DNA from: a virus
Length of the DNA stretch: 22,189 bases
Direction: 5' to 3' (one strand)
Virus record (IMG/VR): IMGVR_UViG_3300007344_000287
Coordinates: 1-22,189 of that record
Part shown: piece by piece, positions 744 to 14,119 of the stretch
Position numbering within the stretch: the stretch's first letter is position 1
Layout: each line of letters begins with the position of its first letter
Notes under the pieces: generated by a model
Database searches by the model: none
Seen by the model: only the letters and a program-made list of their open reading frames with translations
What the model was told of the DNA's origin: nothing
Program-made: the position numbers and the translations under genes

Positions 744-1427
744 CTATACCTTGTTCTGCCTAAAATCCTTGATGAAAAGCCACTTCCGAGAACGGTCGCG
801 CCATTCCCCATCTACCCCCTTTGTCTTGCCCCGTTGCTGCACCTTCCCATCTACCCAGAAGTCCTTTTTGGGAGCGGTCATCCCCAGCGCGGTGAATCCG
901 CTTGCTTTGTAGATCGTCCCTTGATGCCCCTGCCCATCGTCAGCATAGGTCACAATTCCCTTCACGGTCGCCAATTTGCGGAGCAGTTTTGTCGTGATGG
1001 CGATGAATCTGCTTTCCGAGTTTTTCGGGCAAAGCGGCGACATCACCAGTCGCTTGATTTCCCACCAATCTCCTTGGGCGTGCCTGTCCCAATATCCTGC
1101 GAGATCGGTCGCGTTTGGTGGGCCGTATGTGATCGCGCCTTCTAGCTTGCCCTCCCAATATGCCCCGAAGTTGATCTGGGACACGAACCCTTGATCTCCC
1201 AAGTAGTGCCATGCGCGATACGCTTTTGCGGCTGTTGGTGCGCCGATTTCTCGGAAGTAGAGTTGGAGCGCGGAGGTCGGACTTGAACCGCCATCTTCCT
1301 CTTGGAATAGAGGTAGCTCTACCGTTGAGCTATCCACGCATAAAGCAGAACAAGTAGTCGCAGACGAACCCGCCTTAGCTTCGGGTCGTTCGGGCGTCTC
1401 TTGATCTGACAGGGTTAAATCTTTCAT
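744..1427 (-). CDS. Mom-like DNA modification protein (GNAT-type acyltransferase) with an unusual N-terminus
   Basis: From about residue 54 the 227-residue product matches the pattern of phage Mu Mom-like proteins: an AWHYLG motif (72-77), GAITYGPP (98-104), WWEIKRLVMSP (121-131), a conserved NSESRFI segment (136-142), then TYADDGQGHQGTIYKASGF (160-178). Mom proteins adopt a GNAT fold and in Mu modify adenines, shielding phage DNA from restriction. The assignment is by pattern recall. Residues about 30-55 are encoded by the tRNA-Gly-like sequence at 1264-1339, and no ATG, GTG or TTG lies between the tRNA end and the conserved AWHYLG motif. Translation must therefore start at ATG 1427 (chosen; 9 nt after the preceding ORF) or at GTG 1337 inside the tRNA. 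Confidence 0.7.
   Translation of the reverse strand: MKDLTLSDQETPERPEAKAGSSATTCSALCVDSSTVELPLFQEEDGGSSPTSALQLYFREIGAPTAAKAYRAWHYLGDQGFVSQINFGAYWEGKLEGAITYGPPNATDLAGYWDRHAQGDWWEIKRLVMSPLCPKNSESRFIAITTKLLRKLATVKGIVTYADDGQGHQGTIYKASGFTALGMTAPKKDFWVDGKVQQRGKTKGVDGEWRDRSRKWLFIKDFRQNKV
1264..1339 (-). tRNA. tRNA-Gly(TCC)-like gene with an expanded anticodon loop, embedded in the mom-like ORF
   Basis: Read on the minus strand, the 76-nt element has an acceptor stem GCGTGGA pairing fully (one G-U) with TCCGCGC, a discriminator T and an encoded CCA. It has a perfect D stem GCTC/GAGC with a GG-containing loop, and a T arm GGCGG-TTCAAGT-CCGACC with a canonical loop and one bulged A. The anticodon arm is odd: CCTC/GAGG closes an eight-base loop TATTCCAA instead of a seven-base loop. 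It contains the TTCCAA expected of Gly-TCC. Either this is a functional variant tRNA, possibly frameshift-suppressor-like, or a decaying one. It is co-directional with, and wholly inside, the mom-like reading frame. Confidence 0.65.
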
Positions 1428-5011: not shown

Positions 5012-5272
5012 AATCCAGGGAAACCTCGCGGCTGAACGGCAATCCAGGGAAACCTCGCGGCTGAACGGCAATCCAGTGACGCCTCGCGGCTGAACGGTAA
5101 TCCAGTGACGCCTCGCGGCTGAACGGCAATCCAGGGAAACCTCGCGGCTGAACGGCAATCCAGGGAAACCTCGCGGCTGAACGGCAATCCAGTGACGCCT
5201 CGCGGCTGAACGGCAATCCAGGGAAACCTCGCGGCTGAACGGTAATCCAGTGACGCCTCGCGGCTGAACGGG
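5012..5272. repeat. Nine tandem 29-bp repeats (iteron-like array)
   Basis: Nine head-to-tail units of exactly 29 bp start at 5012, 5041, 5070, 5099, 5128, 5157, 5186, 5215 and 5244. Each begins AATCCAG and ends CCTCGCGGCTGAACGG plus one base. Two subtypes differ in the middle: type A has GGAAACC and type B has TGACGCC, in the order A A B B A A B A B. Units are otherwise almost invariant and there are no spacers. The unit is not a multiple of three, so the long frames through it are artefacts. Possible roles are replication iterons, a partition site, or an operator array for the adjacent RHH protein. Confidence 0.9.
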
Positions 5273-5586
5273 AATGCTCCTGCTTTTGATCTGGAGCAGA
5301 GACGGATCTGCACACCCCGCCCATTGCGCTGGACGGAGCATGCATGCTTCTGCTTTCGAGAGCCATCGCTGTCAAATGGAGAGCTGCAACGGATGAAATG
5401 CCACTGGCCCCACGAGGCGCCACCTCATGCCAGTCTAGGCAAATCATCACCCGGGAGCTTCAAGCGCTCCCTTTTGCCCGCGTGATGCGGGGCCATGCTG
5501 GGCCGAGTGTGTTTCGCAGCATGGCTGTGGGGTTGATTAACGCCCTACGCTGTCCGTGTTTCAGGTTTCAGGATCGGGAGCCCCAG

Positions 5587-6019: not shown

Positions 6020-7108
6020 ATGCCGCCCAAGATCAAGCCTAATCCATCCGGGAAATACCCTTGGCTAGTGGAATGGCGGGAAGGAGTGACCAAAACAGGA
6101 GCACCCAAGCGCTGCCGTAAATACTTTGTAAATGCAGCCCAGGCCAAAACCTTCGCACGAGAGAAACGGACGGAACTGGCGACACTTGGCGCCAAGGCAA
6201 CTCCCTGGTCAGCACTGGAAAGAGCGGCCATCGAGGAAGCAAGAGCGGCCCGCATTGATCCGCTTGAGGCTGTGCGGCACTTTGCTCATCTCAAAGCAGA
6301 GCAGGCAAAGAGCGTGCCTGTGGGGGAGGCTGTGGAAGAGCGCCTGAGAGACGCTGAGAGACGTTTTAAGCCTTCCACGGTGACCGACACTAGATACAGG
6401 CTAAACGCTCTCAGAAAGACTTACAGTGAACAGAACGTGAGGGGCATTTCTCGCGATAACCTGGAGAAATGGATTACAGAGCGAGGGAGCACCCAGAACC
6501 AACGGAATTTCTGGATTGTGCTGCACTCGTTCTGGGAATTCTGCATCAGCAGAGGTTGGGCGGGGGAGAATCTATTGGATCGCATCCCCAAACCAGGAAA
6601 ATCTAAAAGCAGCATTCAGATATTCGCGGTGGAACAGCTCCGCACCTTGCTCCACGGGGCAGAGCCTGAAATCCTGCCGGCCCTGGCAATCATGGCATTT
6701 GCAGGGCTGAGGCGATCCGAAGTGATGGCGCTGCAATGGGAGCACGTCAGAGGGGGCCACATCGAAGTCACCGCAGACAACGCAAAGAGCGCTCGGCGCC
6801 GATTGGTGACGATTTGCCCCGCGCTGAGAGAGTGGCTTTTGTGGGAAAAACTGGGTAATATTTCCCACAAATCTGGGGCATTATGGCCGGGCCGCTCCAA
6901 TGCCTACCGCAGAGCTAGGAAACTGGTCACCCCTTGGCCACACAATGCGCTGCGGCATTCGTTCGCCTCCTATCACCTCGCACTGAACAGAGATGCTGCA
7001 AGCACGGCCCTGGAACTAGGGCACAGCTCCACGGCAATGCTGTGGGAGCATTACCGCGAGCTAGTGACCCAGAAAGAGGCTGAAGCGTGGTTCTCGCTTA
7101 CTCCTTGA
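6020..7108 (+). CDS. int: Tyrosine recombinase / phage integrase
   Basis: A 362-residue tyrosine integrase. An N-terminal arm-binding-type domain (about 1-60) is followed by a SAM-like core-binding domain (about 95-185) and the catalytic domain (about 200-355). Catalytic positions are Arg231 in AGLRRSEV, Lys256 in NAKSARRR, Arg312 in NALRHSF, His335 in LGHSS and nucleophile Tyr345 in WEHYREL. The usual first His of the HxxR motif is Asn309, although His308 is adjacent. The NALRHSFASYHLA style is one I associate with Verrucomicrobiota elements. The gene sits beside the attP core, so it most likely integrates the phage at tRNA-Trp. Its 3' end overlaps the convergent sigma-like gene by 58 bp. 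Confidence 0.93.
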   Translation: MPPKIKPNPSGKYPWLVEWREGVTKTGAPKRCRKYFVNAAQAKTFAREKRTELATLGAKATPWSALERAAIEEARAARIDPLEAVRHFAHLKAEQAKSVPVGEAVEERLRDAERRFKPSTVTDTRYRLNALRKTYSEQNVRGISRDNLEKWITERGSTQNQRNFWIVLHSFWEFCISRGWAGENLLDRIPKPGKSKSSIQIFAVEQLRTLLHGAEPEILPALAIMAFAGLRRSEVMALQWEHVRGGHIEVTADNAKSARRRLVTICPALREWLLWEKLGNISHKSGALWPGRSNAYRRARKLVTPWPHNALRHSFASYHLALNRDAASTALELGHSSTAMLWEHYRELVTQKEAEAWFSLTP

Positions 7109-9001: not shown

Positions 9002-9627
9002 CACCACTGCATCCATTCATGCTGCACCGCGTTGGGGCGCGGTTGCCCGTGAAACATTACCACGCTTGCTCCCTGCGGCCCTCGCTCTGCGCAATTATCC
9101 CCCTTATAACTCTTCACCAACCCGGGCGCCTTATCCTGCCACATACCAACTGCATTGGGCAGCAAATCCGCGATCACTTCCTGATCACCATGATTCTCTT
9201 TCATGTGATGCTCTTTCCGCGCTAAAAACCCGGGCCATACTTCGCGCTTGATTGCGTCTGGAATAAACATCATGCCGCTTGCCAATTCTTGATGACGGTA
9301 AAAATCCCGCAGCATGATTGCATTGAGAGAATCGCGGCAGATCCTTTCAATAGGGCGCAGATCACCCGTAACCACCATATCTAGATCAAAGTAAAGCCAA
9401 TCATAATAGGTGTTGAGGCGAAACAGCTCTAGCTTGCTCCACCATCCCGGCAGCCCTACCTCAAGCAGAACGGTGTTGCAGTTTAAGTCGTCTCTATCTG
9501 AAAAGCAGAAAAAGGGCAAATGCCCCAAGCCTCCACGCTCTAGCCCTGCGCGTAGTTTATAAACCCAGTCCGGGGAGTAATCCCCGCCGCTCTTCATTAC
9601 GCATGCAATCGCTAAATCCATGTCCAC
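9001..9627 (-). CDS. Glycosyltransferase, GT8-like (DxD motif)
   Basis: The 208-residue protein contains [10 protein letters not shown] (39-48), a [12 protein letters not shown] block (60-71), and [14 protein letters not shown] (77-90). In the last of these the DLD at 81-83 is the metal-binding DxD of GT-A enzymes. The FDLDMVV context and the downstream LASGMMF and HGDQEVI segments (the latter as [12 protein letters not shown]) fit GT8-like and related families that transfer a hexose from a nucleotide sugar. The start overlaps the end of the collagen-like fibre gene by 16 nt, so translation is coupled to that of the fibre. The fibre is therefore the first candidate acceptor, though a host glycan is equally possible. 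Confidence 0.75.
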
Positions 9628-12491
9628 GCGCCGCCCGTGAGCACCATAGATAAACTATCCCCATTAGAATATCCAACGGGATCTGGCAGGTCTGGAACAT
9701 TCGCGGAGTCACCTTGTGGGCCAGTGGGGCCCTGCGGACCTTGGTTGCCCTGTGGACCTTGAATACCTTGGTCACCTTGCAATCCTTGATTGCCTTGGGG
9801 CCCCGTATCACCTTGCGGCCCCTGAATACCTTGATTGCCCTGGTCGCCTTTGGCTGCCAGCAAATCCCAATAAGTCTGCCAAGACGGGCTAACTCCCGGT
9901 TCAATATTGGTGTGATTTAGAATGCACACATAAGCGCTGCCATTGTGCTCTAATGCATTTGTGACCACGTAGGCAGTGGCATTGCTCCAATCAGCGCTAA
10001 TCCAAATCAGCCCTTGATCACCCGTGTCCCCTTGAATGCCTTGTGGACCTTGCGCACCCTGGTCGCCTTGCACCCCCTGCGGCCCTTGAATGCCTTGGTC
10101 GCCTTGGATTGATGTTTGATAAGCCCAAGTGCCAGCGCTCTTCTTCCACACTTTATTGGGCGCATTCTGGTCTAAATAATAATCACCATTGTTGCCCAGG
10201 CCCGCCCCCGGATCACCATAGCCATTCAACCACTCAGGAGCAACGCCAGTGTCACCTTGAATTCCCTGTGGCCCCTGAATGCCTTGTGGCCCCTGAATAC
10301 CTTGGTCACCTTGGGCGCCTTGCAATCCTTGATCACCCTGCGGCCCCGTATCGCCCTGCGGGCCCTGAATACCTTGTGGCCCTTGAATACCTTGTGGACC
10401 CTGAATACCTTGGTCACCTTGTGGGCCAGTTTCGCCCGTGGGCCCTGGGACAGTGCTTGGATCACCCTGCGTCCCTTGATCACCTTTGGCCGCCCACAGC
10501 TCCCATGCTGACACGTTTGGAGGGGCCACATTTACACTATTAGCAATAGCCAGATAAGTGCTCCCATTATGCTCAACAACATCATCAATGTTGTATGTGG
10601 TTCCGCCAACATAGGCGCCGCGTGGCGTAAACCCTCTACCGTCAGCACCGTCATTGCCGGCGGGGCCAGTCGCGCCTTGCTGCCCTTGCTCACCCTTGGC
10701 AGCCCACTTTTCCCAGTAAGTTGCATTAGGTGGCTCGAAATTAGTGTGCCCCAAAATGCAGCGCCAAGTGGCGCCATCATTGATCACAATATCATCAATA
10801 ACATAGGCAGCGGCGTTGCTCCAAGTGCCGCGAGGCGTAAACCCTCTGCCGTCAGCACCATCAGCACCATCAGCACCATTGTTACCCTGATCACCCTGCG
10901 GGCCAGTGGGGCCAGGAACAGTGCTTGGATCGCCTTGGTCACCTTTATCGCCCTGGGCGCCCTTTTCCGCCCATAGCTCCCAGTAAGTTGCATTAGGTGG
11001 CTCTTGATTGGTGTTGGATTGCTTCGCCCGCCAAGTGCTGCCGTCATGATTTACAATGTCATCAAGATTGTAATTGGTGGCGGGGCCCCAATCACCTCGC
11101 GGCGTGAATCCTCTGCCTGCGTCACCCGTTACGCCTTGAATGCCCTGGTCACCCTGCAACCCTTGATCGCCTTGGGGACCTTGTGGGCCCACATCACCAG
11201 TCGCCCCGGGCAATCCGGTCACACCTTGATCACCCTGCAATCCTTGTGGGCCTTGGTCGCCTTGATCTCCTTTATCCCCCTTGGCGCCGGTCACCCCTTG
11301 CAACCCAGTCAATCCCTGATCGCCCTGCGGGCCAGTTATAGATTCGCCCTGCGGCCCTTGTGGCCCTGCATCACCAGTTGCCCCAGGCAATCCAGTTACT
11401 CCCTGAATGCCCTGCGGCCCTTGTGGGCCTTGCGCCCCCTGGTCACCCTGATCACCTGTAGCGCCTTGCACCCCTTGATCGCCTTGCAATCCCTGAATGC
11501 CTTGCGGCCCTGTTTCGCCTTGCAACCCTTGGGGCCCAGTCACACCCTGCTCACCTTGCAGTGATGCTCTCAGCGTCCAAACACCATTTGCCTTCTTGTA
11601 ATAGCTATTAGGGGCATTCCTGTTGATGTAAAAATCCCCATTATCACCCAGGCCAGTGGATGGAGCACCATAACCATCCAAGATCTGGCTACCCGTATCC
11701 CCTTGAATGCCTTGGGGCCCCGATGGTCCTGTGATCGTTTCGCCGGCAGCGCCAGTCAATCCGCGAATGCCTTGCTCCCCTTGATAACCTCGTGGGCCCT
11801 GGGGTCCCGGTACAAAGCCTTCGCCTTTAGCGTCACTGCCAGTTTCCCAGATCAAACACGATCCAGTTTCCAGCTCGATGCAGAAAGGCTCAGCCGTGGG
11901 CCCTGAATCGCCTGTGGGCCCCTGAATGCCCTGCGGGCCCGTAATAGATTCGCCCTGCGGGCCAGATGGTCCCTGCACTCCCTGAATGCCCTGCGGGCCC
12001 TGGTCGCCCGTAGCCCCTGCCGCGAAAATATCCCAATAGGCCTGCCACGACGCACCCACGCCTGGCTCTGTGGTTGCGTTCGTCGTGTCATGGGCAGTGA
12101 TCGCGACATAGGAAACATTGTTATGCGTCACCACATCACGCACAGAAATAGCGCCGCTAATCAGCGACCATGCGCCACGATAATTAAACCCATCACCTGT
12201 GGCCCCTGTTCCCGTGGGGCCCTGATCACCCTGCGGGCCAGTGATAGATTCACCCTGCGGACCTGATGGGCCTTGGGGCCCTGTGATCGTGCTAGTAGGG
12301 CCCGTGGGCCCTTGTGGGCCAGTGATAGATTCACCCTGCGGACCTGATGGACCTTGGGGCCCTGTAATTCCTGTGCCGCCAAGCCCGGGAATGCCCTGCG
12401 GCCCCGTGGGGCCTGTTACAGTTACCCCTGATGGGCCTGTGGGCCCCGTTGGAGACTGAAAACCAAACTCTTTTACCCAGTAACCACTCAT
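9612..12491 (-). CDS. Collagen-like tail fibre with interspersed beta modules
   Basis: From ATG 12491 (ATGA overlap with the hub gene; a start at 12512 adds seven residues) the product is about 959 residues. Long Gly-X-Y tracts, rich in GPQ, GDQ, GPT and IQG triplets, alternate with modules of about 50 residues. At least three modules begin GFTPRG and carry a Trp/Tyr pattern ending YWELWA-KG; two more divergent ones begin GFNYRG and LIWISA. They resemble small chitin/carbohydrate-binding folds. Two further modules share NAPN-YY/VW-KK. The C-terminus ([21 protein letters not shown]) is a capping region. Being next to the J-like hub, it is probably the receptor-binding side or central fibre, forming a trimeric collagen helix. 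Confidence 0.88.
12235..12365. repeat. Recent internal duplication in the fibre gene
   Basis: A block of about 50 bp beginning GGGCCAGTGATAGATTCACC at 12235 recurs 81 bp later at 12316 with very few changes. The spacing equals 27 codons, or nine Gly-X-Y triplets, so triplet register is kept. This points to recent slippage or recombination that lengthened the collagen tract. Confidence 0.7.
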
Positions 12492-14119
12492 CCGAAAGGC
12501 CCTCGCTTCCAAACATCGCCTGTGTCAATGTCCACGTATCTTTCGCCAGGATCACCTTCTCTAAACGGAGATGGTGCGCCATTGCCGCTAGTCCATTTGT
12601 CGCCCTCGCTGTCATTCACGGAGGGGCCATTGGATGTGTCAAAAGTTTGCTCTTCTGTGGAATGATCCCAATCATAAATAGAGGATGCATGCTTTCGCAG
12701 CGTCAACTTAACATGAGCAGAAGCGTTATTAGTGACAAAACTGTGCTCTATCACCTTGTAAATTCCATTAATGCCAAGCGCATCGCTGTTAAGCGTCACG
12801 GCATCCCAAGGCTTAACATCTAAGCCAACAAGCAAATTCACATCACATGTCACCTGCTCATCTAAAAGTTGCGTTTGCAGCGCAATTTTTGCCACCCGTT
12901 GCGCTTGAGTGTGAGAAGCCACAAACTCTAAATCATGCTCCATCACCACCTCTGTGCTTGGTGACCTTTCCTCAGCGAGAAACGGATTGCCGCCCTCCAG
13001 CAACACATCCACATCACTCTCAGTCTGCATTTCGTAAGTGCCTCCCGTGTTTGCGTCTCTGATAATGGGGTATTCAGTCGCGGCATCAAACGTTTCAGGA
13101 GCAACAAAAATGCCCTTGATCACTGTGGCCCTCTCCAGGCTAGTGCGGGCAGTGGTTCTGATAATGTCGCCCACAATATGATCATCTGTAATCGTCACCT
13201 CTGGCGCTGTGTAATAGCCTGAATGAACATAGTAAATCCCATCATGTTCAATCACTGCCCCCGCCATGCATTTAACTACAGGGTCAAGCCAATCTTCTGG
13301 CTCTCCCTCTAGATCAATAAATCCGCCGGCTCTGTATTTCTTCTCTGTTCCTCCCACCTTGTTGACCACAGTGTCACAATCATTCGCAGAAGCGATTAGC
13401 GTGGCACTATCAATGCGAGAGCGAGGAATGTTCACGTAATCCTCTAGAATGTTTGCAGCGATCAACGCAGGGTTGTCAGTCCACTTCAAAGTCTGATCTC
13501 GCGGATCATAGATATTATTTTTGCCCTTGATGGTGCAGGTTAAAGTGGGAATAAACGAGGGGAAACGCGCAGGCGACTCTTTTAGTTTTGCGTAAACGTA
13601 GGCTCTGCCCCTCAGCCTATGGTTCTCACCCCAAAGCGCAGGGTCTGCCGTGTCTTCAACCGCAGCAGGCAATGCCACCTGTGTATCTGTGCCGCTGACA
13701 AATTCAAAAAATGCATAATTCTCAAAGCGCCCATCTGCGCTGTTGGTCACAGGGTCAACAGTCACTAGTTCTCCGTTAATGTAAAAATCGCCAAATTCCT
13801 CCACCTCATGCGCTGCGTAAACAACAATTAAATAAAGGAATTTATTATTCCCCTGGGCGCCGCTGCCGTTGGCGTAGGCAATCAAACCGCCCTTTCTTGA
13901 TTGCCCATAGATCACCTGATGCGCCATGGAGCCTGATCGCACATTACCCGAGCGACCCGGACGGCTTTGCGCATCTGGGCGGCCCTGCAACTTCTGCCCG
14001 AGCACCTGGGCCCCAACAGCCACTGCTGCCTCAATGGCAACAGCCGCAATCGTGCCAATCACACTGGCAGCAGCTTGGGCGCCGGCAACCGCAGTAACAA
14101 TGGCCGCACCTATTCCCAC
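12488..14119 (-). CDS. Tail tip / central hub protein, J-like
   Basis: The 543-residue product starts with an Ala/Gly-rich hydrophobic segment (about 1-40) and then [37 protein letters not shown] and YINGEL. This is the N-terminal arrangement of lambda J-type and related hub proteins. Further on, [21 protein letters not shown] and a long region of beta-strands follow; the C-terminal part carries LGGN-type and DWDHSTEEQ segments. It is shorter than full J, and the receptor-binding extension is supplied by the next gene, the collagen-like fibre. It lies downstream of an NlpC/P60-like gene, the usual order for siphophage tail tips. It closes the distal end of the tail tube. Confidence 0.8.

What the first reader, a model, noticed from the sequence alone, without database searches (positions are those of the whole stretch)
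1264..1427. tRNA-Gly-like gene lies in-frame inside a Mom-like gene
A tRNA with intact acceptor and D stems and encoded CCA occupies codons about 30-55 of the mom-like frame on the same strand, and no start codon follows it before the conserved Mom motif AWHYLG. Maturation of the tRNA by RNase P/Z would cut the mom message, making the two products mutually exclusive. Mom is known to be toxic and tightly controlled in Mu, so tRNA excision would be a plausible and, to my knowledge, undescribed brake.
Basis: partly seen in the sequence, partly recalled or inferred. Interest (0 to 1): 0.75.

Follow-up and report, generated by a model that had tools for sequence, protein, structure and literature searches.

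The report
Glycine tRNA-like RNA welded to mom
Many environmental phages carry, fused to or beside their DNA-modifying mom gene, a small RNA that looks like a glycine transfer RNA altered for use outside protein synthesis; it may deliver the glycine that Mom attaches to phage DNA, which would answer a long-open question about how that modification is made.

Summary
A 76-nt tRNA-Gly-like element with encoded CCA (1264-1339, minus strand) lies in frame at codons 30-55 of a Mom-family ORF (744-1427). It is not a relic. The same element heads tens of divergent mom genes in one fixed codon register; its stems are 99% paired, with two-sided changes at 8 of 20 pairs, several changing the encoded amino acid.

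In other Mom lineages it sits at the 3' end of mom, after the stop, or antisense. Three protein-only searches, blind to RNA, found it in 74/80, 67/77 and 13/18 loci. Every tRNA near mom that ARAGORN could assign in the two larger sets was glycine (37/37). Bacterial glycine-identity bases are kept; decoding and EF-Tu features are altered (bulged A in the T stem, odd anticodon loops, loss of U33 or the D arm).

Best explanation (inferred, ~0.7): a dedicated non-decoding glycyl-tRNA donates glycine to Mom, whose known product is adenine-glycinamide. No RNA, charging or chemistry was tested, and only open-access literature was searched.

The parts
1264..1339 (-). tRNA-Gly-like element with encoded CCA (position i of the RNA = window coordinate 1340-i)
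   Evidence: ARAGORN; Rfam tRNA 30.4 bits; covariance model R1 99 bits, trained on a set that includes it; covariation in relatives
744..1427 (-). Mom-family ORF, 227 aa, first ATG at 1427
   Evidence: Pfam Mom E=9.4e-28; PHROG 1384 Mom-like DNA modification protein
747..1262 (-). folded Mom (GNAT-type) domain, residues 56-227; catalytic-type serine S139 corresponds to Mu S124
   Evidence: AlphaFold2 pLDDT mostly above 85 from residue 61, residues 1-52 below 50; best PDB match 8bv8; alignment with Mu Mom
1333..1339 (-). acceptor stem, 5' strand GCGTGGA
   Evidence: sequence; 7/7 pairs with 1268-1274
1268..1274 (-). acceptor stem, 3' strand TCCGCGC; followed by U73 (1267) and CCA (1264-1266)
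   Evidence: sequence
1316..1330 (-). D arm GCTC-AACGGTA-GAGC
   Evidence: compensatory changes in relatives
1298..1313 (-). anticodon arm CCTC-TATTCCAA-GAGG; UCC at 1304-1306; 8-nt loop, or 6-nt if T31-A38 pairs
   Evidence: conserved loop in 22 distinct relatives
1275..1292 (-). T arm GGCGG-TTCAAGT-CCG-A-CC with bulged A at 1277
   Evidence: fold; bulge conserved in independently found relatives
1335..1337 (-). in-frame GTG inside the element, an alternative start
   Evidence: relatives use starts just upstream or an ATG in the D loop

Best explanation
The element is a working, dedicated, non-decoding glycine tRNA (a 'mom-tRNA') that serves the Mom enzyme encoded with it. Proposed path: (1) the mom transcript, or for antisense copies their own transcript, is trimmed by host tRNA-processing enzymes to a tRNA-like RNA ending in CCA; (2) host GlyRS charges it with glycine through G1-C72, C2-G71, U73, C35 and C36; (3) its altered T stem, anticodon loop and D arm keep it from EF-Tu and the ribosome; (4) Mom, a GNAT-fold transferase, takes the glycyl group from it and puts it on N6 of adenine in phage DNA. 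N6-glycyl-adenine and the known product, N6-carbamoylmethyl-adenine (adenine glycinamide), have the same formula, and an N-to-N (Smiles-type) shift would convert one into the other. Shown here: RNA structure under selection, the glycine identity set, and the tight link to Mom in any arrangement. Inferred: transcription, maturation, charging, EF-Tu escape and the chemistry. In the window's 5'-embedded form each transcript gives either Mom or the tRNA.
For: RNA-level selection: 99.1% of stem cells paired, 8 of 20 pairs with two-sided changes, 0/500 shuffles as high; acceptor pairs unbroken in 47 distinct in-frame elements although changes alter amino acids; weaker codon-position-3 excess than in the Mom body; elbow pair 18-55 covaries G-U/A-G; encoded peptide predicted disordered. 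Link to Mom: RNA-only pattern, 105/112 new loci encode Mom; protein-only searches, element in 74/80, 67/77 and 13/18 loci, in 5', 3' and antisense places. Glycine: 37/37 isotype-assigned ARAGORN tRNAs near mom in the two larger sets are Gly; identity bases kept as listed for bacterial tRNA-Gly in PMC9976931. Not decoding: bulged T stem, odd loops, U33 not kept, D arm sometimes absent. Enzyme: Mu Mom fold, invariant residues kept including the serine mutated in 8bv8; no glycine-rich CoA loop between beta4 and alpha3. Precedents in PMC9976931: S. aureus non-proteinogenic tRNA-Gly that escape EF-Tu via T-stem changes, and the TacT enzyme that reads U73 and G71 of Gly-tRNA.
Against: No RNA, charging or activity was measured. 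Mu, ICP1 and 16 other Mom regions of named phages have no element nearby, so it is not required for every Mom (they could use host Gly-tRNA). Loci are related and counts are not independent. R1 was trained on elements that have the identity bases. Earlier work proposed CoA donors (glycyl-CoA in PMC7824862; acetyl-CoA with iron, from memory). Forming N6-carbamoylmethyl from N6-glycyl needs a rearrangement nobody has shown. The fold search returned CoA-using GNATs below 8bv8.
Confidence: 0.7

Rival explanations
1. Excision brake: the tRNA is a cis element whose maturation destroys the mom message and so limits a toxic protein.
For: In the 5' class start codons lie upstream of or inside the element, in one fixed register, so maturation must inactivate that transcript. 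Mom of Mu is described as toxic when artificially expressed (PMC12707154).
Against: The same RNA occurs after the mom stop and antisense to mom, where excision cannot act that way. A processing hairpin would not need glycine identity bases.
Confidence: 0.08
2. The element is not a donor but a partner of Mom in another sense: Mom modifies or binds the tRNA, for instance a TacT-like GNAT acting on Gly-tRNA, with the element as target, decoy or antidote.
For: TacT, an acetyltransferase, reads U73 and G71 of Gly-tRNA (PMC9976931); Mom has a GNAT-like fold.
Against: The proteins are full Mom-family members by Pfam with all residues invariant between them and Mu Mom, and Mu Mom modifies DNA with a glycine-like group.
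Confidence: 0.12
3. An ordinary phage tRNA gene that boosts glycine decoding, for example for glycine-rich tail proteins such as the collagen-like ORF at 9612-12512.
For: It has a UCC anticodon and the window encodes a long Gly-X-Y-type tail ORF.
Against: 6/8-nt anticodon loop, bulged T stem, lost U33 and missing D arms do not suit decoding, and the link is to mom. Whether relatives share the tail gene was not examined.
Confidence: 0.04
4. A coding relic or recombination joint: an old tRNA captured into the ORF, kept as peptide or as a site where mom alleles are swapped.
For: Fifteen loci share an identical 76-nt element joined to different Mom bodies.
Against: Compensatory changes that alter amino acids, predicted disorder of the peptide, and noncoding and antisense copies. 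Recombination may still use the sequence secondarily.
Confidence: 0.04

Closest known systems
Phage Mu Mom (PF25680; PDB 8bv8)
   Same: Same protein family and fold; invariant H, Y, E, R, S, D, G, Y residues kept, including the serine mutated in 8bv8.
   Different: Mu has no tRNA-like element at mom and controls Mom translation through Com.
Non-proteinogenic tRNA-Gly of Staphylococcus aureus (donors for peptidoglycan cross-bridges, FemX-type enzymes)
   Same: Glycine acceptor identity kept, T-stem features that EF-Tu reads altered; a private donor for a transferase (PMC9976931).
   Different: Bacterial, normal cloverleaf, cell-wall acceptor. Here phage-encoded, linked to or inside the enzyme's gene, and the presumed acceptor is DNA.
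TacT toxins (GNAT) acting on Gly-tRNA-Gly
   Same: GNAT-type fold and reading of U73/G71 on a glycyl-tRNA are a precedent for a GNAT that recognises Gly-tRNA (PMC9976931).
   Different: TacT uses acetyl-CoA and modifies the tRNA-bound glycine; Mom is a DNA modification enzyme.
Phage-encoded tRNA genes (RF00005)
   Same: Cloverleaf stems, CCA end, glycine anticodon bases.
   Different: Anticodon loop size, T-stem bulge, U33 and D-arm loss, and strict linkage to one gene.

Membership tests
Mom family (PF25680) | Profile match above curated cut-off | tested here: met
   97.7 bits against 27.1; all ten relatives tested also match, including Mu and ICP1
Mom family (PF25680) | Residues invariant between relatives and Mu Mom, including Mu S124 | tested here: met
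   27/27 sequences at H74, Y75, E123, R126, S139, D163, G170, Y173 (window numbering)
Mom family (PF25680) | N6-carbamoylmethylation of DNA adenine | not testable with these tools
   needs nucleoside mass spectrometry
tRNA (RF00005) | Covariance-model score above gathering threshold | tested here: met
   30.4 bits against 29; marginal
tRNA (RF00005) | Canonical 7-nt anticodon loop and unbroken T stem needed for normal decoding | tested here: not met
   6- or 8-nt loop and bulged A63, both conserved; so it is tRNA-like and not filed as a decoding tRNA
Glycine-accepting tRNA | G1-C72, C2-G71, U73, C35, C36 | tested here: met
   present in the window; in 54 distinct 3'-type elements 49/49 to 54/54 where aligned, with one exception each at C2 and U73
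Glycine-accepting tRNA | Aminoacylation by GlyRS | not testable with these tools
   needs acid-gel Northern or in vitro charging
Non-proteinogenic donor tRNA | Poor EF-Tu and ribosome use | not testable with these tools
   inferred only from the T-stem bulge and anticodon loop
Prophage attachment-site tRNA fragment | Duplicate copy or junction next to an integrase | tested here: inconclusive
   a search of the record with the 228-bp element region gave one match; the integrase lies 4.7 kb away (6020-7108); the record is a fragment

The most novel reading that the evidence does not exclude
DNA modification fed by an aminoacyl-tRNA: phages encode a private, non-decoding glycyl-tRNA that donates glycine to Mom, which places it on adenine of DNA; in one class the tRNA is also part of the enzyme's own coding sequence, so one RNA is either message or substrate carrier.
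Probability: 0.65. Interest if true: 0.95.

Novelty: categorically new. Interest (0 to 1): 0.88.

Why it matters
The donor for Mom's unusual adenine modification has been unsettled: glycyl-CoA is suggested in PMC7824862, and acetyl-CoA with iron in work I know only from memory. A conserved, glycine-specific, apparently non-decoding tRNA tied to mom points to glycyl-tRNA, which carries both the carbons and the nitrogen of the product, and makes the question testable in an ordinary E. coli K-12 assay. If right, it extends tRNA-dependent chemistry to DNA and adds a phage counter-defence RNA that tRNA annotation misses: the Y8A genome paper reports no tRNA genes (PMC10434257). I know of no described link between a tRNA-like RNA and a DNA modification enzyme, but preprints and subscription journals could not be searched, so part of this may already be known.

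Tried and rejected
Relic or decay: rejected by covariation. Bacterial chromosomal homologues: a DNA pattern scan of the genome collection gave 14 matches, none of them a tRNA-like, and a protein scan gave none, so the evidence is virus-side only. Named phages: 18 Mom regions besides that of Y8A show no element nearby; the tRNA cluster near S-SSM6a mom is ordinary Ile/Thr/Arg/Leu. The second mom of Y8A has none. Full-text searches for Mom with glycyl-tRNA, aminoacyl-tRNA or the modified base found nothing relevant. The paper I remember on Mom, iron and acetyl-CoA is not held. Two alignment calls failed on wrong coordinates.

Full report
1. The observation. The window is a 22-kb phage fragment, a virus record. 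A Mom-family ORF runs 1427-744 on the minus strand. Codons 30-55 are a tRNA-like sequence, 1339-1264, ending in CCA. ARAGORN calls it a tRNA with a 6-nt loop and no isotype, and Rfam scores it 30.4 bits against a cut-off of 29. The acceptor stem is 7/7 and the D stem 4/4. The anticodon arm has TATTCCAA between CCTC and GAGG (8-nt loop, or 6-nt with one more pair), and the T stem GGCGG/CCG-A-CC carries a bulged A. In frame there is ATG at codon 1 and GTG at codon 31; no standard start follows the tRNA before the Mom motif AWHYLG.

2. It is conserved as an RNA. Three close relatives (83-67% identity) share homology that begins sharply at the tRNA, with unrelated DNA upstream. A DNA pattern from the anticodon region found 43 viral loci, 40 of them with a Mom ORF and the element in frame. 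Among 22 distinct elements 99.1% of cells pair and 8 of 20 pairs change on both sides; none of 500 shuffles reaches either value, and slid structures drop to 41-51% paired. In 47 distinct in-frame elements the acceptor pairs are never broken, although pair 4-69 falls on codon positions 2 and 1 and takes six types, so amino acids change to keep the pairing. The excess of change at codon position 3 is smaller in the tRNA than in the Mom body. The canonical elbow pair 18-55 covaries between G-U and A-G. AlphaFold leaves residues 1-52 disordered and folds the rest mostly with confidence. Caveat: the loci are related, so these counts are not independent events.

3. Other Mom lineages have it elsewhere. 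Psychrobacter phage Y8A, whose Mom is 39% identical to that of Mu, has two mini-elements without a D arm just after mom. One metagenomic locus has an element overlapping the 3' end of the second of two mom genes. An RNA-only pattern for the T arm and acceptor end gave 112 new loci; 105 encode Mom and most of the others have the element close to a contig end. To avoid circularity I then searched by Mom protein alone. For 80 Y8A-type loci the covariance model R1 hit 74, one per locus, all 3' of mom: on the same strand 32 span the stop, 9 lie within the end of the ORF, 18 lie after the stop and 2 lie 465 nt away; 13 are antisense. For 77 L105-type loci it hit 67, in most right at the end of the Mom domain. 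For 18 L049-type loci, 13 had it at the 5' end. ARAGORN, which knows nothing of Mom, found tRNAs near mom in the two larger sets, and all 37 with an isotype are Gly; the only far tRNA there is a Gln. A strict structural detector found 19 elements at mom and none in five shuffles of the 382 kb.

4. What is kept and what is lost. In 54 distinct 3'-type elements G1, G71 and C72 are invariant where aligned, C2 is 53/54, U73 is 52/53, and C35 and C36 are 49/49 where aligned. These are bacterial glycine identity elements (PMC9976931). U33, the D arm, the loop length and an unbroken T stem are not kept, and the T-stem bulge is nearly universal. An ordinary tRNA in one such phage (L282) lacks the bulge. 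So the RNA looks built to be charged with glycine but not to decode. R1 was trained on elements that have the identity bases, which biases it; ARAGORN and the detector, which does not ask for those anticodon bases, do not share that bias.

5. Mechanism. Mom of Mu makes N6-carbamoylmethyl adenine, an adenine glycinamide (established knowledge, from memory). The window Mom has the Mu Mom fold (best PDB match 8bv8, titled inactive mutant S124A) and all invariant residues including that serine. Its loop at the place where GNATs usually bind CoA has no G-x-G motif. Glycyl-tRNA would supply exactly the atoms added: N6-glycyl-adenine is an isomer of the known product, and attack of the free amine on C6 with transfer of the amide nitrogen (Smiles-type) would yield it. 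This chemistry is my inference. Mu and other named phages have no element near mom and would draw on host Gly-tRNA; a private tRNA could help where host Gly-tRNA is limiting or held by EF-Tu.

6. In the 5' class the start codon often overlaps the preceding gene's stop (ATGA/GTGA) or lies in the D loop, and all distinct contexts listed share one register, so each transcript gives tRNA or Mom. That could limit Mom, but the 3', post-stop and antisense copies show that it is not the common function.

7. Limits. No experiment; no preprints or subscription papers; dependence among loci; the reported acetyl-CoA and iron binding of Mu Mom (from memory) remains to be reconciled. I rate the reality of a conserved Mom-linked tRNA-Gly-like RNA at about 0.97 and the glycine-donor role at about 0.7.

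Noticed in passing
L010, L012, L018, L022, L032, L047 and others: Fifteen loci carry a letter-for-letter identical 76-nt element joined to clearly different Mom bodies, as if mom alleles were swapped at the element.
   Followed up: partly
window 9612-12512 (-): A 966-aa ORF full of collagen-like G-P-Q-G repeats next to tail genes, with many 18-bp-period repeats.
   Followed up: no
window 5012-5275: Nine tandem copies of a 29-bp unit, 91% matching, in a stretch without an evident gene.
   Followed up: no
window 6020-7108 (+): Tyrosine-integrase-like gene (PHROG 1) on the strand opposite to mom and the tail genes; suggests a temperate phage.
   Followed up: partly
L065:3156-3296 (Psychrobacter phage vB_PmaS_Y8A): Two tandem mini tRNA-likes without a D arm after mom; the genome paper reports no tRNA genes and annotates only a second mom elsewhere in the genome, which has no element.
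   Followed up: yes
L313:1312-1381 and 2023-2092: Two elements in one locus of the L105-type set; some loci of this set carry two Mom ORFs.
   Followed up: no
L108, L118, L154, L166: A stop codon lies just upstream of the element in the mom frame, so translation should start inside the tRNA-like, for example at ATG in the D loop.
   Followed up: partly
Roseobacter phage CRP-212, L064:2501-3019: The mom-like frame is not annotated there; the record calls a MazG-like CDS over most of the same DNA, in another frame.
   Followed up: no
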